A stretch of DNA of 64,000 bases. It comes from Paracoccus sp. MBLB3053 (GTDB lineage: Bacteria > Pseudomonadota > Alphaproteobacteria > Rhodobacterales > Rhodobacteraceae). This document shows, piece after piece, positions 4,868 through 64,000 of the stretch. The stretch is from the NCBI RefSeq assembly GCF_031822435.1, contig NZ_JAVQLW010000005.1, positions 228,501 to 292,500 on the forward strand, read 5' to 3'. The first letter of the stretch is position 1; each line of letters opens with the position of its first letter. The notes under the pieces are model-generated. The model ran no database searches and was not told the DNA's origin. It worked only from the letters and a program-made list of their open reading frames with translations. A program made the translations under genes and the position numbers.

Positions 4868-4920
4868 TGCCGCGCCAATCCCGGCGGACTGTTGCTTGCG
4901 GTTCGAGGAGCACGTCCCCC

Positions 4921-8554: not shown

Positions 8555-8618
8555 CGCTGCTCCTGCGTTGCGGATATGGTATTCTTCATTTCTCTGCTCC
8601 TCGCCAGAGCCACTACGG

Positions 8619-42315: not shown

Positions 42316-42560
42316 GTCTCCAGCCTCGCCAAAACCGGCGCGTGCACCAAATCACAAATGCGAAACATCGCCTGGCTGCCCCAATTAGCCCAGAAACTTT
42401 TCGAAGTTGCCAGATCCCGCTTCGGATGCAGAGGGGGCACGGGCCCGCTAGAAATTTCACAAAACAGTCACGCATTTATAACCTGTTTGTTACCAATCGG
42501 CTCAAAACACGCGCTCCGCAAGTCCCCTGTCCCGCAGGGTTTCACTGGAGATACAATACA

Positions 42561-46151: not shown

Positions 46152-46550
46152 TCACCTGTTCTTGGGATTCGTCTTCTTCGTCGTTTTCGCCGCCCCGCGG
46201 GTCGCGGGTTTTGACCTTGTCTTCACCGAGGGTGCGTCGGCCGCCTTCAGCGTCGCACCGAGCTTGCCAAGCCGGTCTGCCGTATCCTTGCCGACAGCTT
46301 CGCGCGGTGGGTTCGGGCGGATCGCCGCGATCTGCTTCAGGGCTGCTTCCTCGGCGGCGATGGCTTCGTCATATCGTGCGAGAACCGCCTTTTTCTCGGC
46401 GTTCAGCCGTTCGATCCGGATTTCGACCCGCTTGATCATCTCGGCCGCCGCATCCACCCTGACCGAAGTTTCCCGGACGTCGCTGCCGAAGCGCTTGCCG
46501 GCCTCCTCGAATATCCTCTTCTGCTCTTCGATCACCTTGCTCACGCTCAT
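46152..46550 (-). CDS. Coiled-coil protein at end of eCIS operon
   Basis: 132 residues. Residues 1-80 are a charged heptad-rich helix (EEQKRIFEEAGKRFG, ...RIERLNAEKKAVLARYDEAI); residues 95-132 are Lys/Arg/Ala-rich and disordered (KTRSKPATRGAAKTTKK). I do not recognise a family. It is the last gene of the contractile-injection operon, 12 bases after the DUF6519-like/beta-helix gene, so it may be a chaperone, regulator or cargo-related protein (inference from position). Confidence 0.7.
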   Translation of the reverse strand: MSVSKVIEEQKRIFEEAGKRFGSDVRETSVRVDAAAEMIKRVEIRIERLNAEKKAVLARYDEAIAAEEAALKQIAAIRPNPPREAVGKDTADRLGKLGATLKAADAPSVKTRSKPATRGAAKTTKKTNPKNR

Positions 46551-46562
46551 CGCTCGTCTCCT

Positions 46563-49500
46563 TCAGAAAATCAGGTTGAAGCTGGACTCGGGCGCGGGGA
46601 AGTTCGGACCGTTGACGATGCCGGATGCCGTGACATTGCCGATCACGGTTCCCGGCATATTGCCAAGGTTCATCGACGGATGGGCGAAGCTCAGGGCCTT
46701 TACCTGATTGCCCATGACGACACCCGCAGTGCCGTCGAGGATCACCGATGCGTTCCCTGCCCCGGCGACGCCCCCCTGGTGCATCACGTAGTTGTTGCAG
46801 AAGAACACCCGTTCGAACCTGATGGCCACATTGTCGGAGATGTTTGATTGCCGCAATTCGACCAATGCCCTGTTGCCCTTGCCGATGAACTTGTTGTCGA
46901 CGATCTGGCAGGAAAAGCCGAAGCTGATCACGCGATCGCCGAAGGTGAACCGGATTTCCAGCAGCCCCTGCATCAGCAATGCACGATCTTCGCGACCATC
47001 GGGAACGCGCGCGAGGTCTGAACAGGACACCAGATTGGATTCGACGCGGGCCTCGAGGATCAGGAAACCCATGATCCCGGCCGCGGCCTGGGGATTGGCG
47101 TCGCCTTCGACGGGAAGCCCGGTATCCAGCACCTCATTGGCTTCGACATGCCATTCGCCAAGAATGAAGAAGGCGCCGATCCCGCAGGGGAACGGCCCTG
47201 CCGTCCCGCAATTCGCAACCCGGTTCTCGACCACGGTGATGCGCCCAAGGCAGTACATCGCGAGCACACCAAAGGACCGGCAATCCGTCACTCGATTTCC
47301 GCGCACGCTCGCGCCAAGTTCGCCGCTCAACCCGATCGCGATTTCAGTGCCGCTGATGGCATTCGCCTCGATCACGGCGTTTCGGCCATTCGTGGCTATG
47401 ATCGCGTTTGCCCTGCCGGAAATGGTGTTGCCGGCGATGCGGGGCGACAAGGCCTCGTCACATGCCACGGCCGGCGCTCCTTCTGCCGCCGCAGGCGTCA
47501 TGTCGTTATCCGAGAGATCGACCCCCATGGCATCGCGGATGAAGACTGCCGTCGTCATGCCCGCAAGCATGTTGGCCGAGAGGTTCACCCCCGTTGTGAG
47601 ATGCGCCACATCGTCGGGCACGCCGATCAGGATGCCAATATTGCGCGCCGCGTCGGTGGCGGTCACGTCGATGCGGTTTTCAACGATGACAAGCCCCGAG
47701 CCCGTCGCGCGGATGCCGGCGCGGGCACTTCCCCGGAAGCGGATGGTGTTTCCGCGCAGCACGGTTCTGTCAGCCGCGCTGTCGATGCCGTGCCGGGAAA
47801 TTTCGGCATCAGGCGCTTCTTCGGTTTCGGAAAGCGAGACGAGATTATCCGCGACCAGCGATCCGAGAGCGAGCGAGAAGCGCTCTTGCCCGGTGGCGTC
47901 ATCATTCAGACTGACGCCCGTGGCCGCACCCGCGATACGGTTCCCGGTGATCGTCAGGCGCCCGATCGCACCGGGCGCGGCGATGCCGCTCAGCCCTTCG
48001 AAACCCTCGCCCCCGAGGTCCAGGCGGTTCGTCGCAAGGATGATTTCCTCGGAGCGGTAGCCGGCAATAATGCCGATCACCGTGCCCGCAATCGAGCAAT
48101 CGCGTATCGTGACGTCATAGCATGCGACGACGACGATCCCCGAAGACGATGTGCCGCGTTCGGCGGCACAGGCGCAGTCGTGAACACTGATCCCGCTGCT
48201 GTCGAGAATTTCGACGACACCCTGGCTGCCCTCGGCCGCCCGGTGGGAAAACGCGATGGTGTGGACCTCGATCCCCGTCGTGCCGAGGATGCTGAGCGCC
48301 GGTCCCGATCCATCCAGCCGGACGTCCACCCCATGGCATTCGCCATGAAGCGTGATGTTCGGTGCCGAAACGACGATCGGGACCTGCAGGACATGTTCGC
48401 CGGGCTTGAGACAGACGCATCCGCCGACATCGTCGGGCAAGCTGTCGATCGCTGCCTGGATATCCTCTCCGGGACGCACGACGACCGTGCAGCAGCAGAC
48501 CTCTTCGATCGGATCGCGGCAGTCCGAGAAGACCTCGGTCCACACCCCACCTGCCGCCTCGGCCAAGGCAAGTCGGCAGTAATGAAGCTGGTTGTCCTGC
48601 GGCGGCGCAAGATCCAGCTCCTCGACCGAGCTGTCGGCATAGCGCGCGATAAAGCTCCAATTGTCCCCCGGACGGAAATCGCCGCCGAAGGGGTCGAGGG
48701 TCAGCGCGACCTCGACGCCGTCTTCGAGGTGAAGGAAGGTGCCATCCGTCGGCGCTGGGATCAGGCCGTCCGCACCAGGCAGGTCCAGATCGACGACCAG
48801 CGTGCCTGTTTCATCGCGCACCTGTCCCGTCTGGTCCCAGCGCCGGACCACCGGAAAGAAGCTCTGGTCGGCATCGGGACCCGCGCCGTGCAGCCGGATG
48901 GTCCCGGCTGGCAATGCGGCTTCCAAGGTGATCGTGTCGGACGGATCGTCGACCGAAAGGATGCGCGCGATGACGCCCGGAGTTTCGGTCAGGACCCGCA
49001 CCTCATCGGTGATCTCGACCCAGTCGCCGGGATTGAAGCGCAGGAAGTCATCCTTGGCGACCTGCGCGACCTCAAGGACATCGGACGCCGGTTGCGAAAG
49101 GATCGCGGTGGCGACAACGGCATTCGTGCGCGAGAACTTGACCAGCGGCGTGCCGTCCGGCGCAATGTTATGGATAGCAAAGAAATAGGTGCGATTGTCA
49201 GTGCCGCGAAAGGCGGCGTCGGGCGGCAACAGGCAGGGGTCGGGATCGGTGGCAGCCGGGTTCGCCCGCGTGGTCAGGCGCGCGGCCGAAGGCGCGATCA
49301 GGGCGCTCCAGCCAGGGATATCCTCATCATCGGTATCGCAATCGATGCCAGGGCCGACAGGGCCAAAGCTGCGCACCTGCCAGACGGTCTGTCGACGCGC
49401 GAATGTATCGGTGAAGATCGCCGGATCGAGGATGGACGGGTCGTTGAGAAAGGTCGTGTCCCGCTGCCATGTGACCAGATAGATCAGATGCGTCCCGTCT

Positions 49501-49880
49501 TCGGGCGGGTCGGGCGTCACTCCCGGCAGGTAGGGCTGATCGTCGAAGGGAACTGGCTCGAGCCCCCACATCTCGGACAGGATGTCGTCGAAGACCGGCG
49601 TCCCGGTGCCGAAGTTCTCGGCCGGATGGCCATCGACATACATCGTCCCCGGACCGATGGTCAGTGCTCCGCCGGAAAGCCCGATGAGAAAGCTGTCGGG
49701 CTGGGTTGCGGGATAGCCCGCCCGGCCGATCAGATGGGTCATCATCGCGCGAAGCCGTCGGTCGCGAAGGCTGCGGTCCTCGTTGATCGGGGCATCCGTT
49801 GCGACACGGCCCTGCATGGTCGTGGTCCAGGCCGTATTGCGGTGCGAATTGAATGTCTTGCGGCTAATGTCGATCGTCAT
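46563..49880 (-). CDS. eCIS-associated DUF6519-like/right-handed beta-helix protein
   Basis: 1105 residues, the largest protein here. Residues 1-85 (ISRKTFNSHRNTAWTTTMQG, ...LTIGPGTMYVDGHPAENF) resemble DUF6519, a module found with contractile tail-like loci; a beta-rich region follows to ~460. From ~465 a right-handed beta-helix begins (VVVRPGEDIQAAIDSLP) and continues to the C-terminus with dozens of N-x-I/V-type rungs. No signal peptide is seen. It is probably a fibre, receptor-binding or decorating subunit of the injection particle; enzymatic activity on glycans is possible. The GGGGGA ribosome site at 49880 is good. Confidence 0.75.
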   Translation of the reverse strand: MTIDISRKTFNSHRNTAWTTTMQGRVATDAPINEDRSLRDRRLRAMMTHLIGRAGYPATQPDSFLIGLSGGALTIGPGTMYVDGHPAENFGTGTPVFDDILSEMWGLEPVPFDDQPYLPGVTPDPPEDGTHLIYLVTWQRDTTFLNDPSILDPAIFTDTFARRQTVWQVRSFGPVGPGIDCDTDDEDIPGWSALIAPSAARLTTRANPAATDPDPCLLPPDAAFRGTDNRTYFFAIHNIAPDGTPLVKFSRTNAVVATAILSQPASDVLEVAQVAKDDFLRFNPGDWVEITDEVRVLTETPGVIARILSVDDPSDTITLEAALPAGTIRLHGAGPDADQSFFPVVRRWDQTGQVRDETGTLVVDLDLPGADGLIPAPTDGTFLHLEDGVEVALTLDPFGGDFRPGDNWSFIARYADSSVEELDLAPPQDNQLHYCRLALAEAAGGVWTEVFSDCRDPIEEVCCCTVVVRPGEDIQAAIDSLPDDVGGCVCLKPGEHVLQVPIVVSAPNITLHGECHGVDVRLDGSGPALSILGTTGIEVHTIAFSHRAAEGSQGVVEILDSSGISVHDCACAAERGTSSSGIVVVACYDVTIRDCSIAGTVIGIIAGYRSEEIILATNRLDLGGEGFEGLSGIAAPGAIGRLTITGNRIAGAATGVSLNDDATGQERFSLALGSLVADNLVSLSETEEAPDAEISRHGIDSAADRTVLRGNTIRFRGSARAGIRATGSGLVIVENRIDVTATDAARNIGILIGVPDDVAHLTTGVNLSANMLAGMTTAVFIRDAMGVDLSDNDMTPAAAEGAPAVACDEALSPRIAGNTISGRANAIIATNGRNAVIEANAISGTEIAIGLSGELGASVRGNRVTDCRSFGVLAMYCLGRITVVENRVANCGTAGPFPCGIGAFFILGEWHVEANEVLDTGLPVEGDANPQAAAGIMGFLILEARVESNLVSCSDLARVPDGREDRALLMQGLLEIRFTFGDRVISFGFSCQIVDNKFIGKGNRALVELRQSNISDNVAIRFERVFFCNNYVMHQGGVAGAGNASVILDGTAGVVMGNQVKALSFAHPSMNLGNMPGTVIGNVTASGIVNGPNFPAPESSFNLIF

Positions 49881-49907
49881 TTCGATTCCCCCGTGATGGG
49901 TGGTCGC

Positions 49908-51974
49908 TCATGTCGCGTAGAAGAAGCTGGCCTCGAGGCCGTTCGGAACGAATTCCTCCAACCTTGTGGACAGATTGCTTTCCCGTTGAGGCTGGTGGAT
50001 GTGGTGCCACACACCCATTTCGCCCTCGTCATCGGCACCCGTTCGGATCGCGGTCGGGGACGAGGTGAGAAGCTGCAGATAGGCCGGTCTCGGCCATTGT
50101 CGCTGGACAAAACCCGGCACGATCCGCGCAAGGATACGTGTGCGGATCGCCGCCCGCTCCGGATCGGTGAGCAGCGGATTTGCCTCTTCGGCGGCACGGA
50201 TGGCCTCGCCAAGCGCAAGGCTGGGCTGGCAGCGATAGCGTCTTGGCACCCTGCTGCCCGGAGGTATCCATGAAAAGCGCGCGCAGCCTCTCTGGGTGTC
50301 CTCGGCCTCGACAGCGAGGGTCCAGCTATCTGCAGGTGCAAGACGGGCGATCAGGATCGAGTTCGAAACAAGGGTGAAGGCGTGAACGGCAAGCTTGCCG
50401 ATCACGGTGACTTCCTCAAGCGTGACCTGCCCCGCTGGGGAAAGGTGATCAAGCCCGGCAATGGCCACATTCGACGGCTCGCAGGCATCAATCGCCGAAT
50501 CCCGCGCCACGAAGACGGTCGAGGGATGGCAACGAATGCCGCCAACAACCGAGCTTTCGATTTCGACAATCACATTCGAGGCCTCGATCACCAGCGAGGG
50601 TTCGGTTGGTGAAACGGGCGCGCCGTCGGCTGCGGCGGATAGACCCGGGACCAGCGTGACATGGCGCAAGCTAAGCCTGCGCAGTTCGTTCCCGGCGGCA
50701 GGGACTACCACCGGGGCGCCGCCGATCAGCAGCCCATCCAGCGTGACCTCACTGCCAGTCCCACCGCTGATTTCAAGCGGGGCCGTCAGTCGCAAGCTGG
50801 GTCGCTGCCCATCGGCGGCGCGCAGTTCGAACAGCGCGTCCGGATCCGCCGCAATCGCGAAGCTGCCGTCGAATGTGGCGCTATCCGAGATTTCGACGAC
50901 CCCACCCTGCGCGCTCGCATCGACTGCCGCCTGAAGGTCGTCCCCGCTCGCAATCGTGTCGGCCACGCCCGAGGCGAACGCAGCGGCGCGACCATAGGCC
51001 CCGCCGCCGATATCACCCGGAAAGCCTGTATGCAGCATCACCTCGACCCGCGTCGGAACGGCCGAGGCGGAGGGCGTGGCGATCCGGCCCAGAAGCGGGT
51101 CGAAGGCCACGGCCACGGCCGGGGCATGTGCCCATCCCGGCCCGTCATCCTCGAGATTGCAGATCACAAGCGCGGGCGGGACGATTTCGGCCCCATCCAC
51201 CCAGATGCGGAAGGCGCGCGGATGGAAATCCGCGAGTTCCGCGCCGAGCTCTCTCCGGCCCATTGGCACGGGCAGATGCGGCCTCAGCGCCAAAGACCTA
51301 CGGTCAGCTTCGGTCAGGGGCAGGTTGAAGGCCTGAACATCAAGGCCAAGCGGGTGGGCGGCATAACGGCGCGGACCGATCTCGACCGCATCGTGGCGCG
51401 GGAACTCCTGCGCCTGCAGCCGCCAAAGCCAGATCGACAGATTCGCGATATTGCGCTGGCCTTCATGTCGGGGAATACGTCCGACATCGACGGTCGCATG
51501 GGCATCGTCGAAAGCGCCGCCGATCGCCTCGCAACGTTGCGCATGGCGCAGATCCAGCGCGCCATGGACCTGCGGTCGCAGGTGGTTCATGAACTGCGGA
51601 TGCGACAGCAGGCGAAACTCCTCGACCACGCGCGCGGGCCAGCCCGTCGCGCCGCGCGCCACCTCCTCCAGCGTCGCGGCCGTGCCTTTCGAGCGGATAA
51701 GGGCAAGCCATCTGCCCACCAACGCACGCTGGCTGACCGCGCCGATATCATGGACCGGCCGATAGCCGACCAGCGCGCCGATATAGGGAACCAGCCAGTC
51801 GTCGCAGGTTTCGATGAACTGGTTGTCGTAAAGGCGCATTGCCTCGTCCCAAAGGACATCGCCCTGCTCGCCCAGCACATTGAGAAACGATTTCAAGGGA
51901 TAGCCCTGATCCGCGTCGCGGCTTCGATAAACCTGCGGCAGGGAGTCGTAGAGAAATGCGCCGGTCTCGCTCAT
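49908..51974 (-). CDS. eCIS tail-protein-I-like protein with beta-helix body
   Basis: 688 residues. The N-terminus LYDSLPQVYRSRDADQGYP, LYDNQFIETCDDWLVPYIGA and LIRSKGTAATLEEVARG match the phage tail protein I-like domain that joins the baseplate wedge to a fibre. Residues ~340-560 form a beta-helix-like region (VADTIASGDDLQAAVDAS, then repeated short strands). The C-terminal ~100 residues are unassigned. Its start overlaps the baseplate gene stop (ATGA). It likely anchors the beta-helix protein encoded next to the baseplate. Confidence 0.75.
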   Translation of the reverse strand: MSETGAFLYDSLPQVYRSRDADQGYPLKSFLNVLGEQGDVLWDEAMRLYDNQFIETCDDWLVPYIGALVGYRPVHDIGAVSQRALVGRWLALIRSKGTAATLEEVARGATGWPARVVEEFRLLSHPQFMNHLRPQVHGALDLRHAQRCEAIGGAFDDAHATVDVGRIPRHEGQRNIANLSIWLWRLQAQEFPRHDAVEIGPRRYAAHPLGLDVQAFNLPLTEADRRSLALRPHLPVPMGRRELGAELADFHPRAFRIWVDGAEIVPPALVICNLEDDGPGWAHAPAVAVAFDPLLGRIATPSASAVPTRVEVMLHTGFPGDIGGGAYGRAAAFASGVADTIASGDDLQAAVDASAQGGVVEISDSATFDGSFAIAADPDALFELRAADGQRPSLRLTAPLEISGGTGSEVTLDGLLIGGAPVVVPAAGNELRRLSLRHVTLVPGLSAAADGAPVSPTEPSLVIEASNVIVEIESSVVGGIRCHPSTVFVARDSAIDACEPSNVAIAGLDHLSPAGQVTLEEVTVIGKLAVHAFTLVSNSILIARLAPADSWTLAVEAEDTQRGCARFSWIPPGSRVPRRYRCQPSLALGEAIRAAEEANPLLTDPERAAIRTRILARIVPGFVQRQWPRPAYLQLLTSSPTAIRTGADDEGEMGVWHHIHQPQRESNLSTRLEEFVPNGLEASFFYAT

Positions 51975-54652
51975 GACATCAACTCCAGATGATCAAGGGG
52001 CCCGGAATGAAGCGTCAGCAATTCGGCCCCCTGCGTGGCAGAGGCCGGGGCCGCCAGCAACGCAGCCGCGCTCGCAGGAACGGCGCCGGTGTAGAGCAGG
52101 TCCAGCACCACCCCTTCGACGCCCGGCACATCCTGCATGGTTGTCAGGATCTCGGAGGCGAAGACGGTCTGGGCGAAGCTCCGGCCTTCGAACCCGTAAG
52201 CCGTTCTCAGTGCGGCTTCGGCGGCGGCCAGCACCTCGTCGGGAAGATATTCCTCGAACACCTTGATCTTGGCCCCGATCCGGAATGTCTGCGGGCGGTA
52301 GTTCAGCAGCCGGAAGCGGACATAGGGGATGCCGTCCTTGCGCAACCCGCCGACCAAACCGTCGTAGATGGCGCTTCCCGGCAGGATTTCGGCACCCAGA
52401 TCGCCCGCAACGGTTAGTACGATGCCCGGCTGCCCGAGCCCCGGTATGCGGACGCGTTCGGCCCGCGCCTTGGCGATCCCCGCATAGGTCAGCGCATAGT
52501 CGGCATAGTCCGACAGGGACACGACACGTCCCAGCGTCCGGCAGGAAAGCGGCAGATTGCGGCGCAGGTCGTTCAGTGGTTCTGGGTTCGCCCCGCCCTC
52601 GGCAGGCAGCGGATTTTCCGCGGCCTCCACCCCCAGGGGACGCGTCATCAGGATGTTGAGCTGCCCGGCACGCACCCGTCCAGCCAATCCAAGGCCCGTG
52701 CGGTAGGTCGCTCGGATCTCCTGCCCCGAGGCCGGCATGGCCCCGGTCACACCATCTCCGAAACCGTAGGTGGCAATGCCCGTCTCGTCGACGCGCAGGG
52801 TATAGACGCGGTCACCCTGCCGCGCATCAAGCAAGTTCGGCACCTGCTTCCAAAGGATGCCCCCAACCCGCAATTCGGTCGTCGGTGCAGCTCCGCCCAC
52901 AACCTCGGCCGTGATATGGGTCAGGGGACCCTGCCTGGCGACAAATGTCGGAAAGACCCGCGCGGGATCTCCCTTGCCGAGCAGGTCGACCGTTGTCTCT
53001 CCATGCGTTGCAGGGGCGACATTACCGCAGATCCGCAGCGCGTCGCGTGCGTGGTCATAAGCCAGACCTGTGGCAAGCGTGATTGTCGTGCCACCGCCTG
53101 CCTGAAGGTCGTGGAACACGTCTTGGATTTCCGCAGCCTCGACGGCAGGGGCATCCAGCCCATCGGCATATCCCCCGCGCAGCGCCAGTCGCTGGCCGGG
53201 CTGAAGGCCGGGTGACCAGCCGTTCAGCGCGATCTGGGTATCCCCCGCCTTCAACGGATCGACAAATCGCCTGCGTGGCAGATCCAACCATTCGCTGCTT
53301 GTCCAGACAGTCGTGCCGCGGATCGTAAGCTGATCAAATCCGGTCGAACCATCCAGCCCCAGCCGCGTGCTGCGCCCCTGGATCGCGAACCTTGCCAAGG
53401 CCAGTTCGGCGACGTTCTCGACTTCATACAACCCCCAGTCGTCACCATCCTTCAGGGCGACGACTGAGCCTGCGGTCACGTCCTTGAGCACGCGGTCAAG
53501 GTAGATGTTGCCTGCTTCATCCGAAAGGACTTCAAGCGTGCCATCTGCCCAGTGATCCTGCTGCCCGAAATAGGGACCCTGTTCCATGTGGTCGATGACG
53601 ATGACCCCGTCGTCATTGGGCCCATAGACCGGAAACTCCCCCGTCAATGCCGTCGGCAATGACGCAAAGCCTGGCGCCGCATTGCCGAATATCCCCGTGC
53701 TTTGCCGAAAGACGAGAACGCGTTTGCGTGGTTCGGGCAGCCCGATCAGGGGATCGAAGAACGCATCGTCATCGACCCCCGCCTCGTCGAGGATCTTGGC
53801 CAGATCGCCCGCGCTCAACGTCTGGCCCAGATGGTCTGCCAGCGGCGGCTGGACCACGGGGGGCATGGGATCTGGCGGAGGGGCAAAGGCGAAATGCGCG
53901 GGAGTGGTCGCGATCGGGTCTATCACAAGATGCGTCAGATCAATCGCATCCGGATCAAGCGCGGGGTTCGCGGGCTCGATCGTAACCGAAGACACCCTCG
54001 CGAAAACCGGCGTGCCGTCATCTGCCGCGAAGGCCACGCCGTCGCCTGATTTCAGACCGGTGCGTGTTCCCGCCAGCGCCAGCCTCGTCGTGCCCGCAGT
54101 CAATTCCTGGGGTGCATCCAGAAGCGGGCGCATCGCGTTCCATGCGCTGCGCGCCGGGATGGAGGCCGTGGTCTCGAAGATCACAGGCGCTTCGTCGGGG
54201 CCGGGCGTGCTTTGCACCTTTACGCCCGAAGGCAGCTTGATCGATCTGGGCGACCCCTCCACCTCGGACATGCGAAAGGCGATTTCCACCTCGGCCGCGA
54301 CGCCCGGTGAAGGCGCATAGCCGACAAGCATGGCCAGCCCGTGCAGCGAGTTCAGCTCGCGCGCGGTCGGAAGCAAGGTCTCGACTGTCAGTCTTTCGGC
54401 ATAGAAGGTCAGGATATCGCCCACGACCGCCCATGCATCCAGCGCGGCGATCGAGAAATCCACCGCCGGATCGCGCGTGCGAAGATCAGCCAGCGCGCCG
54501 TGTTCGGACGATGAGAGCCGAGCCAGCATCGTGTCGAGAAAGCTCGTGTAAGTCCCCGCCCTTACCGAGATATTGGTCAGACCCGGTCGGTTCCAGGCCG
54601 CTTCCGGCGTGGAAACCATGATGCCTTCGCATGCGCAGCAACTGTCCGCCAT
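51971..54652 (-). CDS. eCIS baseplate wedge protein (Afp12-like)
   Basis: 893 residues. RDPAVDFSIAALDAWAVVGD followed by ILTFYAERLTVETLLPTARE is the signature of 'putative baseplate assembly protein' (TIGR02243-type, gpJ-like) found in eCIS and Pvc/Afp loci. The central domain carries PLGVEAAENPLPAEGG and LRRNLPLSCRTLGRVVSLSD, where baseplate J-like cores lie. It should form the wedge with the 842-residue protein encoded upstream, whose stop overlaps its ATG by one base. Confidence 0.88.
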   Translation of the reverse strand: MADSCCACEGIMVSTPEAAWNRPGLTNISVRAGTYTSFLDTMLARLSSSEHGALADLRTRDPAVDFSIAALDAWAVVGDILTFYAERLTVETLLPTARELNSLHGLAMLVGYAPSPGVAAEVEIAFRMSEVEGSPRSIKLPSGVKVQSTPGPDEAPVIFETTASIPARSAWNAMRPLLDAPQELTAGTTRLALAGTRTGLKSGDGVAFAADDGTPVFARVSSVTIEPANPALDPDAIDLTHLVIDPIATTPAHFAFAPPPDPMPPVVQPPLADHLGQTLSAGDLAKILDEAGVDDDAFFDPLIGLPEPRKRVLVFRQSTGIFGNAAPGFASLPTALTGEFPVYGPNDDGVIVIDHMEQGPYFGQQDHWADGTLEVLSDEAGNIYLDRVLKDVTAGSVVALKDGDDWGLYEVENVAELALARFAIQGRSTRLGLDGSTGFDQLTIRGTTVWTSSEWLDLPRRRFVDPLKAGDTQIALNGWSPGLQPGQRLALRGGYADGLDAPAVEAAEIQDVFHDLQAGGGTTITLATGLAYDHARDALRICGNVAPATHGETTVDLLGKGDPARVFPTFVARQGPLTHITAEVVGGAAPTTELRVGGILWKQVPNLLDARQGDRVYTLRVDETGIATYGFGDGVTGAMPASGQEIRATYRTGLGLAGRVRAGQLNILMTRPLGVEAAENPLPAEGGANPEPLNDLRRNLPLSCRTLGRVVSLSDYADYALTYAGIAKARAERVRIPGLGQPGIVLTVAGDLGAEILPGSAIYDGLVGGLRKDGIPYVRFRLLNYRPQTFRIGAKIKVFEEYLPDEVLAAAEAALRTAYGFEGRSFAQTVFASEILTTMQDVPGVEGVVLDLLYTGAVPASAAALLAAPASATQGAELLTLHSGPLDHLELMS

Positions 54653-57180: not shown

Positions 57181-57551
57181 GCCAGCCCCTCCACCACGAT
57201 CTCGGCGGATGTCTCGCTCCCGGTCGCGCGGATGCGATAACGAATGTCGATGAACAACGCCGAGCCTTCCATTCGCACGTCCAGACCGCGCAGCTCGATT
57301 TCCTGCGCCAGATGGCGCTGCAGCGCGAGGTCGATCGCGGTCCGGGCGGCATCGGCGGATTCGGGCGTCAGCGGGGCAAAAAGCAGATCGGCAAGACCGC
57401 AGCCAAGCGCGGGTCGGACCAGCCGCTCGCCCGGACGGGTGAACAACAATTGCTCGATCAGGTCGCGGACATGGTCTTCGTACCTGGTGCGTGCCGTCAT
57501 CCCGTCACTGGCCAGGCGATAGGGGTAGTCGGTATGGAATATCCCTGTCAT
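57177..57551 (-). CDS. GPW/gp25-family baseplate protein (Afp9-like)
   Basis: 124 residues from ATG at 57551, overlapping the PAAR-like gene stop (ATGA). HVRDLIEQLLFTRPGERLVR and PALGCGLADLLFAPL are the core of the gp25 fold, including the conserved 'EP/RPxxG' turn. In contractile systems gp25 nucleates the sheath at the baseplate. Length and position next to the J-like genes fit Afp9. Confidence 0.93.
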   Translation of the reverse strand: MTGIFHTDYPYRLASDGMTARTRYEDHVRDLIEQLLFTRPGERLVRPALGCGLADLLFAPLTPESADAARTAIDLALQRHLAQEIELRGLDVRMEGSALFIDIRYRIRATGSETSAEIVVEGLA

Positions 57552-57871
57552 GTGGCGATCACCCTTGGCTGGGCAAACGACGCGATCAGCGGCGTTCCGG
57601 TCGGGGTGCAGATCGAGATGCCGGTAAAGATCGCAAGCGGCGTCCCCAGAGAGGTGACGCGCGTCGTGCCCATGATGAACGAGGCCGTGACGCAAGGCCC
57701 GTTCGCGGCCGGCGGAGGAGGCAGGGCGCAACCGGCGACCGACCAGACCGCCGGCAGGGGAACGACCGGCTGGCCCGAGACAGTGACGCGCGGATTGGTC
57801 GTCGTCGGCATTGCCTGCCCCCCGTGCGAGCAGGTGACGATCGCGCCCATATGCAGCAACTGTCCCGGCAT
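57548..57871 (-). CDS. PAAR-like spike-tip protein
   Basis: 107 residues from ATG at 57871, 5 bases after AGGAGG (an adjacent ATG at 57874 is too close to it). LLHMGAIVTCSHGGQAMP and the later ISICTPTGTPL resemble DUF4280/PAAR-like proteins that cap the spike; Cys and His residues could bind the stabilising metal ion. The gene follows the gpV-like gene by 23 bases and precedes gp25, as expected for Afp10 or an equivalent. Confidence 0.8.
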   Translation of the reverse strand: MPGQLLHMGAIVTCSHGGQAMPTTTNPRVTVSGQPVVPLPAVWSVAGCALPPPPAANGPCVTASFIMGTTRVTSLGTPLAIFTGISICTPTGTPLIASFAQPRVIAT

Positions 57872-57894
57872 CATTGCCTCCTTCGCAACGAAAA

Positions 57895-58410
57895 TCAGGT
57901 GATGATCAGCGCTCCCAGGTTGATGTCGACGGCATTCCCGACGAGCGAGATCACCGCCCCCCGGCCGTTCATGATGACGATGCCCGTGTCGTTCACGGTA
58001 ATGGTCGCGCCCGAGGCGCTTTGTATCGTGATGCCGCCCACCCCTGACGGCCCGAGCCCGTCCGAGATGACGATGCCGTTCTTCAACGGCGTCTGGATCG
58101 TCACGGCGGGGGTAGGCGGCGGCGCGGTATTGGCAAGCAAGGGCTTGTCGGCAACCGTCCCGAGAAAGCAGCCCAGCCAGACGGGCTTGTCCGCGTCGCC
58201 CTGCTCGAACTGGATCCACACGCCCGAGCCAACCATGGGAACCGAGAACAACCCCTGCTGAAGTCCCGCCACCGGCAGGCAGGGCTTGACCCATGTCGAG
58301 GGCGAAAAGGCGGTAATGCCCGGGATCTCGACCTGGATATGCCCGGTCTGGTTCGGATCGGCGTTCTGGGTGACGGTCGCCCGGTACAGGCCGACAAGAG
58401 GACGGTTCAT
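57895..58410 (-). CDS. Baseplate assembly protein V-like spike
   Basis: 171 residues. YRATVTQNADPNQTGHIQVE opens an OB-fold gpV domain, and VGSGVWIQFEQGDADKPVW with LGCF is its conserved core. The C-terminal ~70 residues (ITIQSASGATITVNDTGIVI) have the regular short-strand repeats of a triple-stranded beta-helix needle. This is the spike half of what is a single VgrG/Afp8 protein in many systems. The start overlaps the hub gene stop (ATGA). Confidence 0.88.
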   Translation of the reverse strand: MNRPLVGLYRATVTQNADPNQTGHIQVEIPGITAFSPSTWVKPCLPVAGLQQGLFSVPMVGSGVWIQFEQGDADKPVWLGCFLGTVADKPLLANTAPPPTPAVTIQTPLKNGIVISDGLGPSGVGGITIQSASGATITVNDTGIVIMNGRGAVISLVGNAVDINLGALIIT

Positions 58411-59540
58411 GCTGGCACCTTTTCGACAGTGGAAACGAGTCCGTTCCGCGACAGAACGAAGGATTGGGTAAGCTGCCCACCCGAGAAGCTCGTGGTGACC
58501 TGCTCGACGTAGAAAAGACCGGTATAGGCAGGTCCGGCGCCGCGCAGGCCGACGAGCTTGTAAGGTTCGAGCATGCGTCCATAGGTCTGCACGTCCAGCG
58601 AACCGGTGACCTTCAGCGGGCCGCTTTGCGCCCTTGCCGCCCGCGCCATGCCGATCAGGGCCGCCTGAACGGGGTTCAGATGGCCCGTGTCATTCATCAA
58701 CTCGACGCGCAGCGGGATGGGCGGCACCGCCCCGAGCGGCGGGTTCAGAACGGGATTCACGACCACCGGAATCGGGATCGGCACCTTGGTTTCGGGGTTC
58801 TGGATCACCACGATCGGGATCATGCCCTTCTGGGTGTCGAAACTGGCCGAGGCATCGCGGATGTTGCGCCAGGCATCCATGTCGAGGTTCAGCGCCGGCT
58901 GAACATCGCCCATCTGCACATCCGGCCCCCAATAGGCGATCGAGGTTCCGACCGTCGGCCCCGGTCGCATCATGAAGACATAGCCAACCTTCTCGGCCAG
59001 CTCCTTCATGTAGCCCAGATCCTTGCCGTGATGCTGCGGGATCGACGAGGTGGGCAGGGGCACATCCAGAAGCACCGAGGGAATGACCATCGGGATCACA
59101 CCCAGAAAGGCGTATTTCGCCAGGATCAGGTTTACCCGCGCGAAGTCGGGCATCGCCGGATAGCGGATGAAGTCAAAGGGGATGTAGTCCATCACCCGGC
59201 TCATATCTTCGCCCGTCACGGAAAGCCGCGACGTACCAGGCGACGGGCCGGGCGTGACCTCGTGATGCGTCATCACGCCGTCGATCAGGATTGTGTCGAC
59301 CCCGGCCATGCGTGCGGCGATGACGACCCGCACCATCGGGATCGGTGCACCACCCGAGAGCACGAACAGCGTCGTCAGCGGCGATCGCTGGTCGATGTCG
59401 AAGATCAGCTGGAATACGCCCGGCGCATCCGGGGTGGCGCAGGTCACCGATGCCGATACCAGCGCCTCGAGGATATCCTGCGACACCGGCAAGGGGACCA
59501 CCGGCCCGATGAACAGGCGCATTTCGACGCCGCTGGTCAT
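58407..59540 (-). CDS. Phage protein D-like baseplate hub
   Basis: 377 residues. The N-terminal ~230 residues follow gpD/gp27 hub organisation (FQLIFDIDQRSPLTT, GEDMSRVMDYIPFD, LGYMKELAEKVGYVFMMRPG). The C-terminal PYKLVGLRGAGPAYTGLFYV and EQVTTSFSGGQLTQSFVLSR match the hub's final beta domain. It forms the ring under the inner tube and holds the gpV-like spike encoded next. The gap to the LysM gene is 9 bases. Confidence 0.88.
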   Translation of the reverse strand: MTSGVEMRLFIGPVVPLPVSQDILEALVSASVTCATPDAPGVFQLIFDIDQRSPLTTLFVLSGGAPIPMVRVVIAARMAGVDTILIDGVMTHHEVTPGPSPGTSRLSVTGEDMSRVMDYIPFDFIRYPAMPDFARVNLILAKYAFLGVIPMVIPSVLLDVPLPTSSIPQHHGKDLGYMKELAEKVGYVFMMRPGPTVGTSIAYWGPDVQMGDVQPALNLDMDAWRNIRDASASFDTQKGMIPIVVIQNPETKVPIPIPVVVNPVLNPPLGAVPPIPLRVELMNDTGHLNPVQAALIGMARAARAQSGPLKVTGSLDVQTYGRMLEPYKLVGLRGAGPAYTGLFYVEQVTTSFSGGQLTQSFVLSRNGLVSTVEKVPA

Positions 59541-59549
59541 CCTGCCCCC

Positions 59550-59909
59550 CTATTCATGGCTCTGCCCTCGGATCTGGACCGCAGCGCCGATGACCAGCCG
59601 CGAGCCTGTATCCTTCAGGGCCTGCCGCGCATCGCGGATGCCGTTTGCGTCAAGAATCTTCCAGCCCTGCGACGGATTGCCGAAATAGGCCGCCGCAAGA
59701 AGATCCAGTCGGTCGCCGTCGCGGATCTCGTGGATTGACGTCACCTCGACCGCTTCCAGCGGCGGCACGAAGCGCCGGGCCAGCACCTTGACGTCGCGCC
59801 CGTCAGGGAGCGTCAGGGTCATGACCGGCAGGCCGGCATAGCGGCTGTCAGGCGGAAACGGGGCCTTTTCGTCGCCCGCAGGCATCAGGAGTGCGGCGAT
59901 CTCGTTCAT
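59550..59909 (-). CDS. LysM-like baseplate adaptor
   Basis: 119 residues ending at TAG. The C-terminal ~60 residues (EIRDGDRLDLLAAAYFGNPS, QGWKILDANG) are a tail-protein-X/LysM-like domain; the N-terminal half carries GLPVMTLTLPDGRDVKVLAR. In Afp7 and gp53-like proteins this domain sits on the same chain as a tube-initiator domain; here the two are separate, overlapping genes (ATGA with the gene at 59906). Confidence 0.8.
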   Translation of the reverse strand: MNEIAALLMPAGDEKAPFPPDSRYAGLPVMTLTLPDGRDVKVLARRFVPPLEAVEVTSIHEIRDGDRLDLLAAAYFGNPSQGWKILDANGIRDARQALKDTGSRLVIGAAVQIRGQSHE

Positions 59910-60544
59910 AGCGCCCCCTCGATGCCCAATGTGGCAAGCTGCGTATTGGCGACCCGGGCCGCGCTCGCCTCGATATTGCGCAGATAGGCCCGATAGATCG
60001 CGCCACCGCGACTGGAATAGCCAAGATCGTCGACGGAAAGCGCGCGGAGCGTCATCTGGACCGTCGCCGCCAGCGGATAGAGACGCGCGTTGAAGAATTC
60101 CTCGGTGTAGCTGAAGGCGACCAGCCGGAACGGAATGATCTGTGTCCGACCCCAGATGAACAGGCTGAGCGGCTGCGTCATCGGCACGATTTCAAGCGCG
60201 CCGCTTTTTTGCAGCGCGTCATTGGCATCAAGCATCGCCGTGGTCGGCGTGACGAGCATCTGCAATGCCGCAAGCTGCGGCCTGATCCCCTCATCGATCG
60301 CGACCGCATCACCCCGCGCCAATGCGTCCGACACTTCCATCCGGGCTTCGAAACTGATCGTTTCCACCGCCGGTCCGGTCAGCCGAAGGGGCGAGGAACG
60401 GCCGGTTTCCTCGCCCATCGACTTGACCTCGAAGCTGTGCTGCAGGCTCGCCGGATTCACCAGCATGGGCAGAGCCCGAACGACCGTTCCCGCATCGTCC
60501 AGAAGCACGATCCCGCCCTTGAGATATTTCGCCCCGTTCGTCAT
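59906..60544 (-). CDS. CIS tube-like adaptor protein (Afp7 N-domain-like)
   Basis: 212 residues. YLKGGIVLLDDAGTVVRALP, LVNPASLQHSFEV, LTGPAVETISFEARM and RTQIIPFRLVAFSYTEEFFN fit the CIS tube-like protein that starts the inner tube on the hub. FNARLYPLAATVQMTLRAL is the usual closing motif. Start and stop both overlap neighbours by 4 bases. The assignment is by motif and by position before the LysM gene. Confidence 0.8.
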   Translation of the reverse strand: MTNGAKYLKGGIVLLDDAGTVVRALPMLVNPASLQHSFEVKSMGEETGRSSPLRLTGPAVETISFEARMEVSDALARGDAVAIDEGIRPQLAALQMLVTPTTAMLDANDALQKSGALEIVPMTQPLSLFIWGRTQIIPFRLVAFSYTEEFFNARLYPLAATVQMTLRALSVDDLGYSSRGGAIYRAYLRNIEASAARVANTQLATLGIEGAL

Positions 60545-62886
60545 CCGCCACGCCTCCGCCTGCGCCGGGAGGTCCCGCCCTCCGGTCGGTCCGGACGCAG
60601 GATGCCGCCCAATCCGTTCCTGAGCGGATGGAACGAAATACGGGCTTCGCGCACCTGCGGCACGAATTCGGGGGTCTCGGTCCGGGTCCGGTCGGTGACC
60701 GACGTGCCTCGTTCGCTTTCAAGCACCTGCAGCCGGCGCTGGATCGCTTCCAGTTCGCTTCGCCGGGTGGCGGAATTCGAACCGCCCTGCCGGCCGGTAA
60801 CTTCCTGCTCGCCCTCGACCTGACGACCCTGTTCGGCGCGCAGTTCTGCGGATTGCTGGCCGCTGACAGTGGTCTGACCGCCGACGCTGTTCGTCGTGGT
60901 GGTCGCGTTTCGCTGTTCGGCCGCGCCGCCAAGGCGGTAATTGCGCCGCCTGACCTCGCCCCAGAGACGCTTGGCGCGCAGGTCGCCCGACAGGTCGCCC
61001 GACAGCGAAAGCGCCCCCTCGGGCGAAAGGCTGAGGCTGATGCCCCCGGTCAGTTCCGGAAAGATGCTGAGCAGGCCCGCAAGCGCCGGTATCTCGGGGA
61101 CAGCAAGGCCCGCAAGGTCGGCAATGGGGCCCAGCACATCCCCCAAGGCCGACAGGTCCATGGTCGTGCCAAGCTCGATCCCGAGCTGGGTCGCAAGACG
61201 CAGCGCCGCTTCGGCGCCGATCCCGGCATGAATGTCGATCCCGGCCTCGGTCTGGGTCGATTGCTCGGTTTCGCCCCCCATTTCGCCTTCGATGCGCAGC
61301 ATGTTCTCGCGCATGGTCTGGACCTGGTTCTGCCAGTTCTGCTGCGATTCGAAGCCACGGATCGCGCCTTGGGTCGCGCCCACTGCGCTGTTGAGCTGTT
61401 CGCGCCGCCGGTTGCGCTCCTCCACGCTCCAATTTCCGCTTTGGGTCGTCTCTCCGATCTGCGCCTCGCGCTGCTGGCGTTCGTTCTCGGTGCGCTCTGT
61501 CACCGAGCTGGTACGGGTTTCGCTATGCTCGGTCTCGACCCGGCGCCGCTCCTGCGCGGCAAGCATGACCTCTATCCTGGCCTCGACTTCCTGATTGTCG
61601 GCGGTGGGAATGGCCGGGTAATGCGCCCCGAGCGAGCCCTCGCCCTCCTCCTCCACCTGAGGCAGCGAGGTCCGGGTTGCCGTGGCATAGGCGGGCCAAA
61701 GTGCCGTGTCGCGCGGCACCACCCAGAAGATCGCGCGGGCCAAGCCGTCCTTGTTCTTCGGATGCGCCGCGGTCGCTATGTTCAGCCCGCCCGGCCGTGT
61801 TCCCTCGGAAAACATGGCATTCTGCCGAAGCTGCTCGAATTCCGCGGTCCCGTCAGGACGTATTTCGAAGGTGTCCAGCGCCAGACCGGCAATGTCCTCG
61901 GGCAGGTTGGGGTCCTTGCGGATATTGTAGGACAGCTTCCATTTCACATCCTGCGGCTGTGCCCCGGACTGCTCGGTACCGACGACCCGCGCGCCGCCGC
62001 TGGTTCCGCCGTAGATCAGCGTGGTCAGTTCGTCGAGACGCGCACCGTCGAAACGGTCAATCAGCGCATCGACCCCGAAGCTGTTCACCAATTGCTCGCG
62101 CTCAAGCTGCGACGCGTCGCGCAGAATCCTCAGCACCGCATCCTGATCCCCGTCCGAGGAATAGCCATCAAGCAGATGGCGCATCAGCTTCAGCCGCACC
62201 GGCAATTCGGCGGCGCGCGCAAGCGTCGTGCCACTGATCGCCGCCGAGTGGGTCGATGCGTCATGCAACCCCCGCGCTACGATGGCCCTTGCCATGTTGT
62301 CCGAAACGGTCGAGGAGAGATCGCCCGGTCCGCGCGTCAACTCGCCGATGAACCGCGTCAGTTCGGCATCCGAAAAATCGTCGCTGCGAAAGAGGCCCGC
62401 GAACTGTTCGAAGATATTCGCGCCCCGCAGCACCTTCGGATCGTCCCGGCCCGACCGCGCCTCGACGGCATGGGCCAGCTCATGCGCGATCAACCCTTTG
62501 CCCGGCGCGCTTTCCGGCGCCCACGCCCCCGCGGCGAAGCCGACATGTCGTCCCACCGCGAAACCGGCGCTGCGGATGTCGCGCGCGACCGAAGCGGCGG
62601 CCTGTCCACGGTGTAACCGGATATCGCCGAAGGGCTCGCCGAAGGCACCTTCCATTTCGGCGCGAACATCGGGGGAAAGGGTTTCCCCGGGCTCGTCCAG
62701 CATCCGGTCCAGGTTTTCGGGTGCCATTGCCTGGTCACGTTCGGCCCCCTCGGCGATGCCGTCCAATGCGCCGTCATGCATCGCACGGATCGCGGGATCG
62801 GCCAGCCGCCCTTGCACGCGCCGTTCGGCCGCATCGCCGCGTCGGCCCAGCTTCATTCCCGCTGTCTGGACATGTCGCTGGCTCAC
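60541..62886 (-). CDS. DUF4157 (HELAH) eCIS-associated protein
   Basis: 781 residues from GTG at 62886, which overlaps the stop of the 60-residue gene (GTGA); an in-frame ATG is 10 codons later. The DUF4157 domain (~60-150) has PFGDIRLHRGQAAASVARDI and GLIAHELAHAVEAR, with HELAH a metallopeptidase-like HExxH motif at 135-139. Residues ~480-620 are Glu/Gln/Arg-rich coiled coil, followed by a Gly/Ala/Leu-rich hydrophobic segment (~630-690) that could insert in membranes, and an Arg/Gln-rich tail. DUF4157 is tightly linked to eCIS loci and suspected of cargo or effector processing. It is a good effector candidate. Confidence 0.82.
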   Translation of the reverse strand: MSQRHVQTAGMKLGRRGDAAERRVQGRLADPAIRAMHDGALDGIAEGAERDQAMAPENLDRMLDEPGETLSPDVRAEMEGAFGEPFGDIRLHRGQAAASVARDIRSAGFAVGRHVGFAAGAWAPESAPGKGLIAHELAHAVEARSGRDDPKVLRGANIFEQFAGLFRSDDFSDAELTRFIGELTRGPGDLSSTVSDNMARAIVARGLHDASTHSAAISGTTLARAAELPVRLKLMRHLLDGYSSDGDQDAVLRILRDASQLEREQLVNSFGVDALIDRFDGARLDELTTLIYGGTSGGARVVGTEQSGAQPQDVKWKLSYNIRKDPNLPEDIAGLALDTFEIRPDGTAEFEQLRQNAMFSEGTRPGGLNIATAAHPKNKDGLARAIFWVVPRDTALWPAYATATRTSLPQVEEEGEGSLGAHYPAIPTADNQEVEARIEVMLAAQERRRVETEHSETRTSSVTERTENERQQREAQIGETTQSGNWSVEERNRRREQLNSAVGATQGAIRGFESQQNWQNQVQTMRENMLRIEGEMGGETEQSTQTEAGIDIHAGIGAEAALRLATQLGIELGTTMDLSALGDVLGPIADLAGLAVPEIPALAGLLSIFPELTGGISLSLSPEGALSLSGDLSGDLRAKRLWGEVRRRNYRLGGAAEQRNATTTTNSVGGQTTVSGQQSAELRAEQGRQVEGEQEVTGRQGGSNSATRRSELEAIQRRLQVLESERGTSVTDRTRTETPEFVPQVREARISFHPLRNGLGGILRPDRPEGGTSRRRRRRGG

Positions 62887-63065
62887 GGCTTCCTCCCCGG
62901 CAATCTGGAAAGGATCGCCTGCGCCGCCGCGCCCGCCTTGCCCTTGGCAGGTAAGCCTTCCCGGCCAGATTTCAGCGCCGCGGCAAGCTTGTCGCCGAAA
63001 TCGCGATCGGCGCCCTTCGGCAGGACAAGGCGGTCGATCCTGACGGCAATCGGGCGATCGTTCAT
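62883..63065 (-). CDS. 60-residue protein between ATPase and DUF4157 genes
   Basis: ATG at 63065 overlaps the ATPase stop (ATGA) and its own stop overlaps the GTG of the DUF4157 gene, so all three are translationally coupled and the frame is very likely real. Residues 1-25 (IAVRIDRLVLPKGADRDFG) resemble short leaders seen in eCIS operons; the rest is Ala/Gly/Lys-rich with AAQAILSRLPGRK at the end. I recognise no catalytic motif. It may be a small structural or loading factor. Confidence 0.75.
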   Translation of the reverse strand: MNDRPIAVRIDRLVLPKGADRDFGDKLAAALKSGREGLPAKGKAGAAAQAILSRLPGRKP

Positions 63066-64000
63066 CGTGCCATCCTCCTGCGCAGCAGCCCGAGGTCGAT
63101 CGGCTGATTGTGCTTGGCGTTCTCGAAATCGAGCGCGGCAAGAATGTCGCCCATGCAGATTCCCTCGCCCCGTTCGGCCGCAAGAAAGGCCGCGTTCAGC
63201 GAAACCGTGCGGATTGCCCCGCCCGCGAGCGGCAGTTCCGCAAGCCGTTCGAGGTCCAGCGCGCTGGCTGGCGCTCGCGCCGGAAAGGCCATCGCCCATA
63301 GCCGCCGACGTTCGGCAAGACCGGGGAAGGGAAACGGAATGACGAAGCGCAGCCTTCGCAGGAAGGCGTCGTCCACGGCCGAGCGCATGTTCGTCGTGAG
63401 CAAGCAGACACCCGGCGTCGTCTCGAGCCGTTGCAACAGGTAGGCAACGGTCATCGAGACGAAGTGCCTGCTGCTGCCCTCGCCCTCGCCGCGTTGGCGG
63501 AACAGGGCTTCGGCCTCGTCGAAAAGGAGGATCGCGCCGGACCGCTCGGCAAGGCCGAACACGCGGTCGAGATGTTTTTCCGTCTCGCCGAAATACTTGT
63601 CGACCACCTGAGCAAGGTCCACCCGCAGCAGATCCAGCCCCAGTTCGGCCGCGACCGCTTCAGCGGCATATGTCTTGCCGGTTCCGCTGGGGCCGCAGAA
63701 TAACGCGGTCACGCCAAGCCCGCGATCGGTTGCGCCCCCCATGCCCCAATCGCGATAGACGGTTGCCCGGTGCTTCACCTGTGCCGTCATCGCCCTGAGT
63801 GCCGCAAGAGTCTGCGTCGGCAGGACAAGATCGCTCCACCGGGCACGGGCGGGAAGACGAAAGATCAGAGGATCGGGCTGTGGCGCCTGTGCCGTGCGCG
63901 CAGCTGACCAGGCCGCGGCAGCCCGCTTGCGGGGTGGCATGTCGGGCAGACAGGCTGCGATCCGCGCGATGTCGTCGGCCCCAAGTGCGAAGGTTTCGGC
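63062..64000 (-). CDS. AAA+ ATPase of eCIS (Afp15-like), truncated by window edge
   Basis: 312 residues are visible; the frame stays open through 64000, and the 20 codons before the first internal Met (63940) look coding (FALGADDIARIAACLPD), so the start is outside. Walker A GPSGTGKTYAAEAVA, Walker B AILLFDEAEALF, sensor LLTTNMRSAVDDAFLRRLRF. This C-terminal AAA module follows a helical region in the Afp15/Pvc15 ATPases found in essentially all eCIS loci, where it may help particle assembly or cargo loading. The gene order implies that the rest of the operon lies to the right. Confidence 0.9.
   Translation of the reverse strand, partial: AETFALGADDIARIAACLPDMPPRKRAAAAWSAARTAQAPQPDPLIFRLPARARWSDLVLPTQTLAALRAMTAQVKHRATVYRDWGMGGATDRGLGVTALFCGPSGTGKTYAAEAVAAELGLDLLRVDLAQVVDKYFGETEKHLDRVFGLAERSGAILLFDEAEALFRQRGEGEGSSRHFVSMTVAYLLQRLETTPGVCLLTTNMRSAVDDAFLRRLRFVIPFPFPGLAERRRLWAMAFPARAPASALDLERLAELPLAGGAIRTVSLNAAFLAAERGEGICMGDILAALDFENAKHNQPIDLGLLRRRMAR

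What the first reader, a model, noticed from the sequence alone, without database searches (positions are those of the whole stretch)
46152..64000. Baseplate half of an extracellular contractile injection system in a Rhodobacteraceae-like genome
At least ten genes in one coupled minus-strand operon match eCIS parts: AAA+ ATPase, DUF4157, CIS tube adaptor, LysM, gpD hub, gpV spike, PAAR-like, gp25, two J-like wedges. No phage replication, capsid, terminase, integrase or lysis gene is present, which argues for a tail-like particle rather than a prophage. The arrangement and the two beta-helix proteins are unlike the textbook Afp/PVC set. Novelty is inferred, as I cannot search databases.
Basis: partly seen in the sequence, partly recalled or inferred. 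Interest (0 to 1): 0.82.

Follow-up and report, generated by a model that had tools for sequence, protein, structure and literature searches.

The report
Complete phage-tail-like injection machine operon
This bacterium carries a complete, intact set of genes for a headless, spring-loaded phage-tail-like syringe of a widespread known kind; the least expected detail is two unnamed proteins kept near its motor gene in most relatives examined.

Summary
The result is an unbroken run of 19 genes, 11 of 18 junctions overlapping by 4 nt. All matches in this genome to two portal, one capsid and one terminase family (10 of 10) lie on another contig. So it is neither prophage nor remnant.

The claimed novelty mostly falls. 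The order recurs in 77 of the 80 best loci kept out of 573 or more relatives, in the same genus and on plasmids of Streptomyces and Paracoccus. The fibre carries DUF6519, published in 2026 as fibre anchor eBAP5 with pectin-lyase tips. The eCIS_core/DUF4157 protein sits where the Tme effector sits in S. davawensis.

What remains: two conserved proteins without a family model, a roughly 60-105 aa protein starting in the ATPase stop codon and a proline-rich protein before the cap. Their profiles share a strand motif. Function unknown; joint docking is inference.

The parts
63062..64000 (-). AAA+ ATPase, 605 aa, cut by the window end (start at 64879). Further parts of the same run beyond the window, in continued window numbering (L002 + 56000): cap 64876-66192, proline-rich protein 66189-67001, gp26-like protein 66998-67684, tube 67689-68219, sheath 68233-70194, all minus strand
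   Evidence: AAA PF00004 1.2e-22, start by 4-nt overlap with the cap stop. Cap PF14065 3.4e-38, tube PF06841 6.7e-36 and TIGR02241 7.5e-33; sheath PHROG 23 7.8e-46, Pfam 1.4e-5 below cut-off, solved sheaths to 4.7e-61; gp26-like: no family above its cut-off, match in 78 of 80 loci, name mine; proline-rich: C-terminal profile 2e-5, no Pfam
62883..63065 (-).
   Evidence: ORF of 60-90 aa at the same place in 14 of 14 family loci and an ORF of 45-130 aa in 53 of 67 named loci; no family model; its own profile score is weak, E 0.31
60541..62886 (-). eCIS_core (DUF4157) protein, 781 aa, presumed cargo
   Evidence: PF13699 2.3e-21; relatives along the whole length in G660 and G679, 27-28% identity
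59906..60544 (-). CIS tube adaptor (Afp7-like), 212 aa
   Evidence: no Pfam hit itself; the 12 other members of its alignment match PF19266 CIS_tube
59550..59909 (-). LysM / gpX-like protein, 119 aa
   Evidence: Phage_tail_X 0.022; match in 36 of 80 loci, many of which end before it
58407..59540 (-). gpD-like hub, 377 aa
   Evidence: profile to VgrG of a solved structure 4.9e-9; no Pfam
57895..58410 (-). gpV-like spike, 171 aa
   Evidence: PF04717 1.9e-20
57548..57871 (-). PAAR-like spike tip, 107 aa
   Evidence: position and sequence; no Pfam or PHROG hit; orthologues at 40-62% identity
57177..57551 (-). gp25-like wedge, 124 aa
   Evidence: PF04965 6.5e-15
54652..57180 (-). baseplate J-like wedge 1, 842 aa
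   Evidence: TIGR02243 1.2e-54
51971..54652 (-). baseplate J-like wedge 2, 893 aa
   Evidence: TIGR02243 4.1e-59
49908..51974 (-). tail-I-type protein, presumed fibre adaptor, with inserted beta-helix, 688 aa
46563..49880 (-). DUF6519 (eBAP5) tail fibre with right-handed beta-helix, 1105 aa
   Evidence: DUF6519 1.9e-18, Beta_helix 1.6e-15
46152..46550 (-). 132-aa charged protein, last gene of the run, membership uncertain
   Evidence: 12 nt after the fibre gene; one partial match in Kaistia soli L073; no match in 5 same-genus loci

Best explanation
A complete, intact eCIS operon of the single-sheath, single-tube, two-J, tail-I/DUF6519 type. Shown: gene set, order and open frames. Inferred from known systems: the baseplate (hub, spike, PAAR tip, gp25, two J wedges) assembles around the adaptor; tube and sheath stack on it and the cap closes it; the eCIS_core protein is the cargo, loaded with help of the AAA+ ATPase; the particle leaves the producing cell; the DUF6519 beta-helix fibre, held by the tail-I-type protein, binds a surface polysaccharide or protein of a target cell; sheath contraction drives spike and cargo through its envelope. 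Target and cargo action are unknown; no toxin domain was recognised.
For: Structural genes found with family or profile support. 11 of 18 junctions overlap by 4 nt, no gap over 27 nt. Same relative order in 77 of 80 named loci and, with the fibre, in same-genus G660 and G679 at about 32-62% identity. Phage_portal 3, Phage_portal_2 3, Phage_capsid 3 and Terminase_6N 1 matches, all on contig C1, none on C5. Fibre type published. The slot between ATPase and adaptor holds an ORF of 150 aa or more in 38 of 43 loci, with an HExxH pattern in 35 of 43.
Against: No lysis or release gene is among the operon genes (none was sought elsewhere), so release is inferred from the fibre. No tape-measure family was hit. 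The cargo role is by analogy (PMC11126660 passages; PMC8213781 section 10). Hub, LysM/gpX, PAAR and tail I rest on weak or no single-sequence hits plus position.
Confidence: 0.82

Rival explanations
1. The particle works inside the producing cell, as in Streptomyces coelicolor or S. davawensis, causing cell death, DNA release or development.
For: The S. davawensis system, whose sheath clade spans phyla including Proteobacteria, acts in its own life cycle through Tme, a DUF4157 protein just upstream of the baseplate genes. Streptomyces plasmid loci share this order. Same-slot proteins of 1701-1716 aa in G001, G125 and G639 have 5-7 hydrophobic stretches, as Tme is reported to have membrane helices.
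Against: This operon has a DUF6519 fibre, an anchor class read as target binding. Its own 781-aa protein has only two overlapping hydropathy peaks, and G660 and G679 have none. A CisA-like membrane adaptor was not searched for.
Confidence: 0.14
2. A prophage, or a decayed remnant of one.
For: The parts are phage-tail relatives, and the genome has portal, capsid and terminase genes elsewhere.
Against: No match to the four families searched lies on this contig. The 8 flanking proteins scanned are ordinary: MarR-acetyltransferase, chromate transporter, LysR regulator, flavin reductase, DUF2254, phosphatase-autotransporter, FUSC-type exporter and one without a family. All frames are open. AAA, DUF4157 and DUF4255 are listed eCIS core domains (PMC8213781).
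Confidence: 0.02
3. A membrane-anchored, contact-dependent device like T6SS or haloarchaeal CIS.
For: Contact-dependent haloarchaeal CIS are reported in PMC11566945, of which I saw only the search listing and the start of the abstract.
Against: No membrane-complex gene is recognised in the operon; a DUF2254 membrane protein lies beside it on the other strand.
Confidence: 0.02

Closest known systems
Streptomyces davawensis CIS with Tme effector (PMC11126660)
   Same: DUF4157 protein directly upstream of baseplate genes; a clade spread over distant phyla.
   Different: Our protein is 781 aa with no recognised nuclease domain. The S. davawensis locus was not fetched, so synteny is from passages and section 6 of the paper.
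eBAP5/DUF6519, Tail_P2_I eCIS of the 2026 fibre catalogue (PMC12923769)
   Same: DUF6519 anchor, beta-helix pectin-lyase C-terminus, tail-I adaptor, fibre gene at the baseplate end. A legend shows such a fibre from Rhizobium grahamii.
   Different: Here the tail-I-type protein also holds a beta-helix and there are two J-type genes; I did not check whether the catalogue notes either.
Plasmid eCIS of Streptomyces sp. NBC_00299 and Paracoccus pantotrophus pPAN2
   Same: Same gene order including a small gene overlapping the ATPase stop by 4 nt, annotated as hypothetical protein.
   Different: P. pantotrophus has no DUF4157 gene in the slot and its tube is only 35.9% identical.
Afp / PVC
   Same: Same kinds of parts; the sheath matches Pvc2-4 and Afp2-4 chains and the tube Pvc1, Afp1 and Afp5.
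   Different: One sheath and one tube gene instead of three and two in those structures; the fibre is of the DUF6519 type. From recall: Afp/PVC keep ATPase and cap near the end of the cluster and fuse hub and spike.

Membership tests
eCIS | contractile sheath gene | tested here: met
   Pfam below cut-off
eCIS | gp19-type inner tube | tested here: met
eCIS | baseplate set: gp25, J, spike, hub, PAAR | tested here: met
   PAAR by position and sequence only
eCIS | AAA+ ATPase and DUF4255 cap in the operon | tested here: met
eCIS | no capsid, portal or terminase beside it | tested here: met
   four Pfam families searched; 10 of 10 matches on contig C1
eCIS | particles released and injecting | not testable with these tools
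   needs microscopy and assays
eBAP5 / Tail_P2_I baseplate type | DUF6519 fibre anchor | tested here: met
eBAP5 / Tail_P2_I baseplate type | tail-I adaptor gene | tested here: inconclusive
   TIGR02242 1.2e-6, under its cut-off; no Pfam hit; position fits
eBAP5 / Tail_P2_I baseplate type | largely lacks an Afp12 homologue | tested here: inconclusive
   two TIGR02243 proteins; whether one is Afp12-like was not tested
Tme-like effector group | DUF4157 at the N-terminus, just upstream of baseplate genes | tested here: met
Tme-like effector group | relation to tape-measure proteins, membrane helices, coiled coil | tested here: inconclusive
   two overlapping hydropathy peaks in ours, none in G660 and G679; no tape-measure profile was run
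Tailed prophage | portal, capsid or terminase genes in the locus | tested here: not met

The most novel reading that the evidence does not exclude
This eCIS lineage has two overlooked parts kept in most loci: the small protein that starts in the ATPase stop codon and the proline-rich protein before the cap. They share one strand-forming motif and both dock by it on the same partner, most likely the AAA+ ATPase or the cap, handing over between assembly and cargo loading. The small protein is kept even where the cargo slot is empty, so it would be part of the machine and not an immunity or cargo-specific protein.
Probability: 0.3. Interest if true: 0.6.

Novelty: new member of a known kind. Interest (0 to 1): 0.34.

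Why it matters
As a locus it is one more intact eCIS with a beta-helix fibre in an environmental-type genome. The useful lead is general: two conserved proteins near the cap and motor genes have no family model in Pfam, and the small one none in NCBIfam, so the parts list of a large eCIS lineage is probably incomplete. If they help the ATPase load cargo, they bear on the open question of how eCIS choose and load effectors.

Tried and rejected
Prophage or remnant: rejected. Novel gene order: rejected. Novel beta-helix fibre: rejected, published. Cargo C-terminus as an orphan: a search of 385 class-level genomes (own included) gave one other, marginal match (E 0.0076), but G660 and G679 of the same genus hold relatives along the whole length at 27-28% identity, so it evolves fast and is not an orphan. 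Known fold for the small protein: 17 Foldseek matches, none under E 0.001; sequence search of solved structures, best E 0.66. Small protein as cargo immunity or cargo-specific chaperone: made less likely, as the 5 loci of 43 with an empty slot (L056, L081, L083, L104, L108) have it by position or profile. It is not universal: 14 of 67 loci lack the NTGA overlap form (several have it 0.8-2.4 kb further on), and L110 of S. europaeiscabiei gave no profile hit. Insertion site: the flanking DUF2254 and chromate-transporter proteins match in 56 and 92 of 101 same-genus genomes, own and paralogues included, but I did not resolve an empty site. The last gene, 46152-46550, stays unexplained.

Literature: searches showed no paper on the small or the proline-rich protein; they used general terms, and the original dbeCIS paper was not among the 20 of 32 listed. 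What I saw of papers: PMC8213781 outline, section 10 and a term search; PMC4122934 outline and section 4 part 1; PMC11126660 passages and section 6; PMC12923769 passages and section 8; passages only of PMC13277306, PMC12998442, PMC11495950, PMC11297309 and PMC12237407; others as listings.
Full report
WHAT IS THERE. The window is contig C5:228501-292500 of a 4.6-Mb genome in 8 contigs. I fetched the next 32 kb; L002 agrees with the window where they overlap. Along the minus strand from 70194 to 46152 there are 19 genes: sheath, tube, gp26-like protein, proline-rich protein, cap, AAA+ ATPase, a 60-aa protein, eCIS_core protein, tube adaptor, LysM/gpX, hub, spike, PAAR-like tip, gp25, J1, J2, tail-I-type protein, DUF6519 fibre, and a 132-aa protein of uncertain membership. 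Eleven of 18 junctions overlap by 4 nt and the largest gap is 27 nt (for cap to ATPase the overlap is read from the printed sequence). Family support is; solved-structure relatives of sheath, tube, wedge, hub and adaptor. The PAAR-like, hub, adaptor and gp26-like proteins have no Pfam family of their own. The genome has one match to Pfam sheath PF04984 (below cut-off) and one to eCIS_core PF13699, both here.

IT IS NOT A PROPHAGE. Matches in the genome to Phage_portal (3), Phage_portal_2 (3), Phage_capsid (3) and Terminase_6N (1) all lie on contig C1. The neighbours scanned are a MarR-acetyltransferase, a chromate transporter, a LysR regulator and a flavin reductase on one side, and a DUF2254 membrane protein and a phosphatase-autotransporter on the other. 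Other phage families were not searched.

HOW COMMON IT IS. In the family, 11 of 248 genomes, own included, match the hub, five of the others strongly. In the genus, 24 of 101, own included, match the sheath, some only over short stretches or with several sheath genes, so presence is patchy. G660 and G679 hold the operon in the same order at about 32-62% identity. A profile of the tube found at least 573 relatives in named genomes; the best 80 were kept. Of these 80, a match was found to sheath in 80, tube in 80, gp26-like in 78, cap in 68, ATPase in 67, eCIS_core in 52, adaptor in 45, LysM in 36, hub in 25, spike in 18, gp25 in 11, PAAR in 8, J1 in 6, J2 in 2, tail I and fibre in 1 each, the proline-rich protein and the last gene in 0 by plain comparison. 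Loci reach at most 10 kb past the tube, so the falling numbers say little about absence, and equally the fibre end was hardly tested in this set. Relative order differs in L063, L073 and L095. Titles name alpha-, beta-, gamma- and deltaproteobacteria, Chloroflexi, Nitrospira, cyanobacteria, an acidobacterium and a Bacteroidetes MAG. On plasmids, Streptomyces sp. NBC_00299 has the same ATPase, small gene, DUF4157 succession with 4-nt overlaps; S. europaeiscabiei has the set, DUF6519 included, split in two facing halves without a recognisable small gene.

THE CARGO SLOT. Between ATPase and adaptor, 43 loci with both ends were examined: 38 hold an ORF of at least 150 aa, 35 with an HExxH pattern (a short pattern, so a few may be chance), and 5 are empty. 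In family genomes the slot holds proteins of about 474 to 1716 aa, three in a row in G213, or none (G071, G130, G230, G685). Our 781-aa protein has eCIS_core at 70-146; the rest has no Pfam family and no solved relative but is related along its length to the G660 and G679 proteins. PMC11126660 reports evidence that a DUF4157 protein in this position is an ejected effector in S. davawensis. That ours is cargo is inference by position and domain.

TWO UNNAMED PROTEINS. (a) The small protein. In 14 of 14 family loci an ORF of 60-90 aa starts inside the ATPase stop (five are of the same genus, so not independent). In named loci with a complete ATPase, 53 of 67 show an ORF of 45-130 aa starting in an NTGA overlap, against 2 of 80, 1 of 80, 1 of 78 and 0 of 66 after sheath, tube, gp26-like and cap genes. 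Those genes are usually followed by larger genes, so the control is partial. A profile from 26 of the 53 hit 38 of 54 other loci at E under 0.001, all on the operon strand and after the ATPase where one was mapped, sometimes 0.8-2.4 kb further on. It hit only 3 of 9 family loci at that level; our own protein scores E 0.31, so its membership rests on position, coupling and the N-terminal motif. No Pfam or NCBIfam family covers it: of 55 members, two had one weak Pfam hit each and one a weak NCBIfam hit. AlphaFold predicts two helices after an extended N-terminus for the L106 member (pLDDT 83). (b) The proline-rich protein. Between gp26-like and cap, 67 of 67 loci have an ORF, 34 of 67 with both of my motif patterns. 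A C-terminal profile trained on 33 hit 32 of 34 test proteins, ours at 2e-5, with E-values for that small set. In the 14 family loci it gave a hit at E 0.01 or better just before the cap in 10, G000 included. (c) Comparing the two profiles gave one local match, the strand motif of each: score 24.2, P 0.00026, probability only 42%. Two hundred column shuffles reached at most 10.8, and five other operon profiles 8.3-11.7. Column shuffling destroys strand alternation, so this control flatters the match. Records call the small gene, and the gene at the place of the proline-rich one, hypothetical protein (the second by position only).

HOW IT WORKS. Shown: intact parts, order, lineage. Inferred: baseplate-first assembly, ATPase-assisted cargo loading (reported for Pvc15 in PMC11495950, passages), release, fibre-triggered contraction. 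Not shown: particles, release, target, cargo action.

VERDICT. A real, complete, intact member of a known eCIS lineage. Interest is modest and lies mainly in the two unnamed conserved proteins.

Noticed in passing
window 42021-44462 (+): A tyrosine phosphatase domain (Y_phosphatase3, 1.1e-58) fused to an autotransporter beta-domain (1.1e-36), so perhaps a surface-displayed phosphatase, two genes from the eCIS. The stretch before the phosphatase domain (from residue 212) looks to me like over-extension of the ORF.
   Followed up: partly
window 46152-46550 (-): A 132-aa charged protein closing the gene run; its first 31 residues match a stretch next to the Kaistia soli eCIS (L073:20235-20327).
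   Followed up: partly
G000 contig C1: Three portal-capsid pairs (near 58-62 kb with a terminase, 2.04 Mb and 2.83 Mb) and three Phage_portal_2 genes, likely several prophages or a gene transfer agent.
   Followed up: no
L018/L019 (G213), ATPase-adaptor slot: Three eCIS_core genes in a row, suggesting several alternative cargoes on one machine.
   Followed up: no
L073 (Kaistia soli): Operon split in two, baseplate genes on the opposite strand from the sheath-to-cargo half.
   Followed up: no
L147 (Deinococcus taeanensis plasmid), 3755-8596: A very large gene annotated as FHA-domain serine/threonine-protein kinase lies inside a CIS cluster of another lineage.
   Followed up: no
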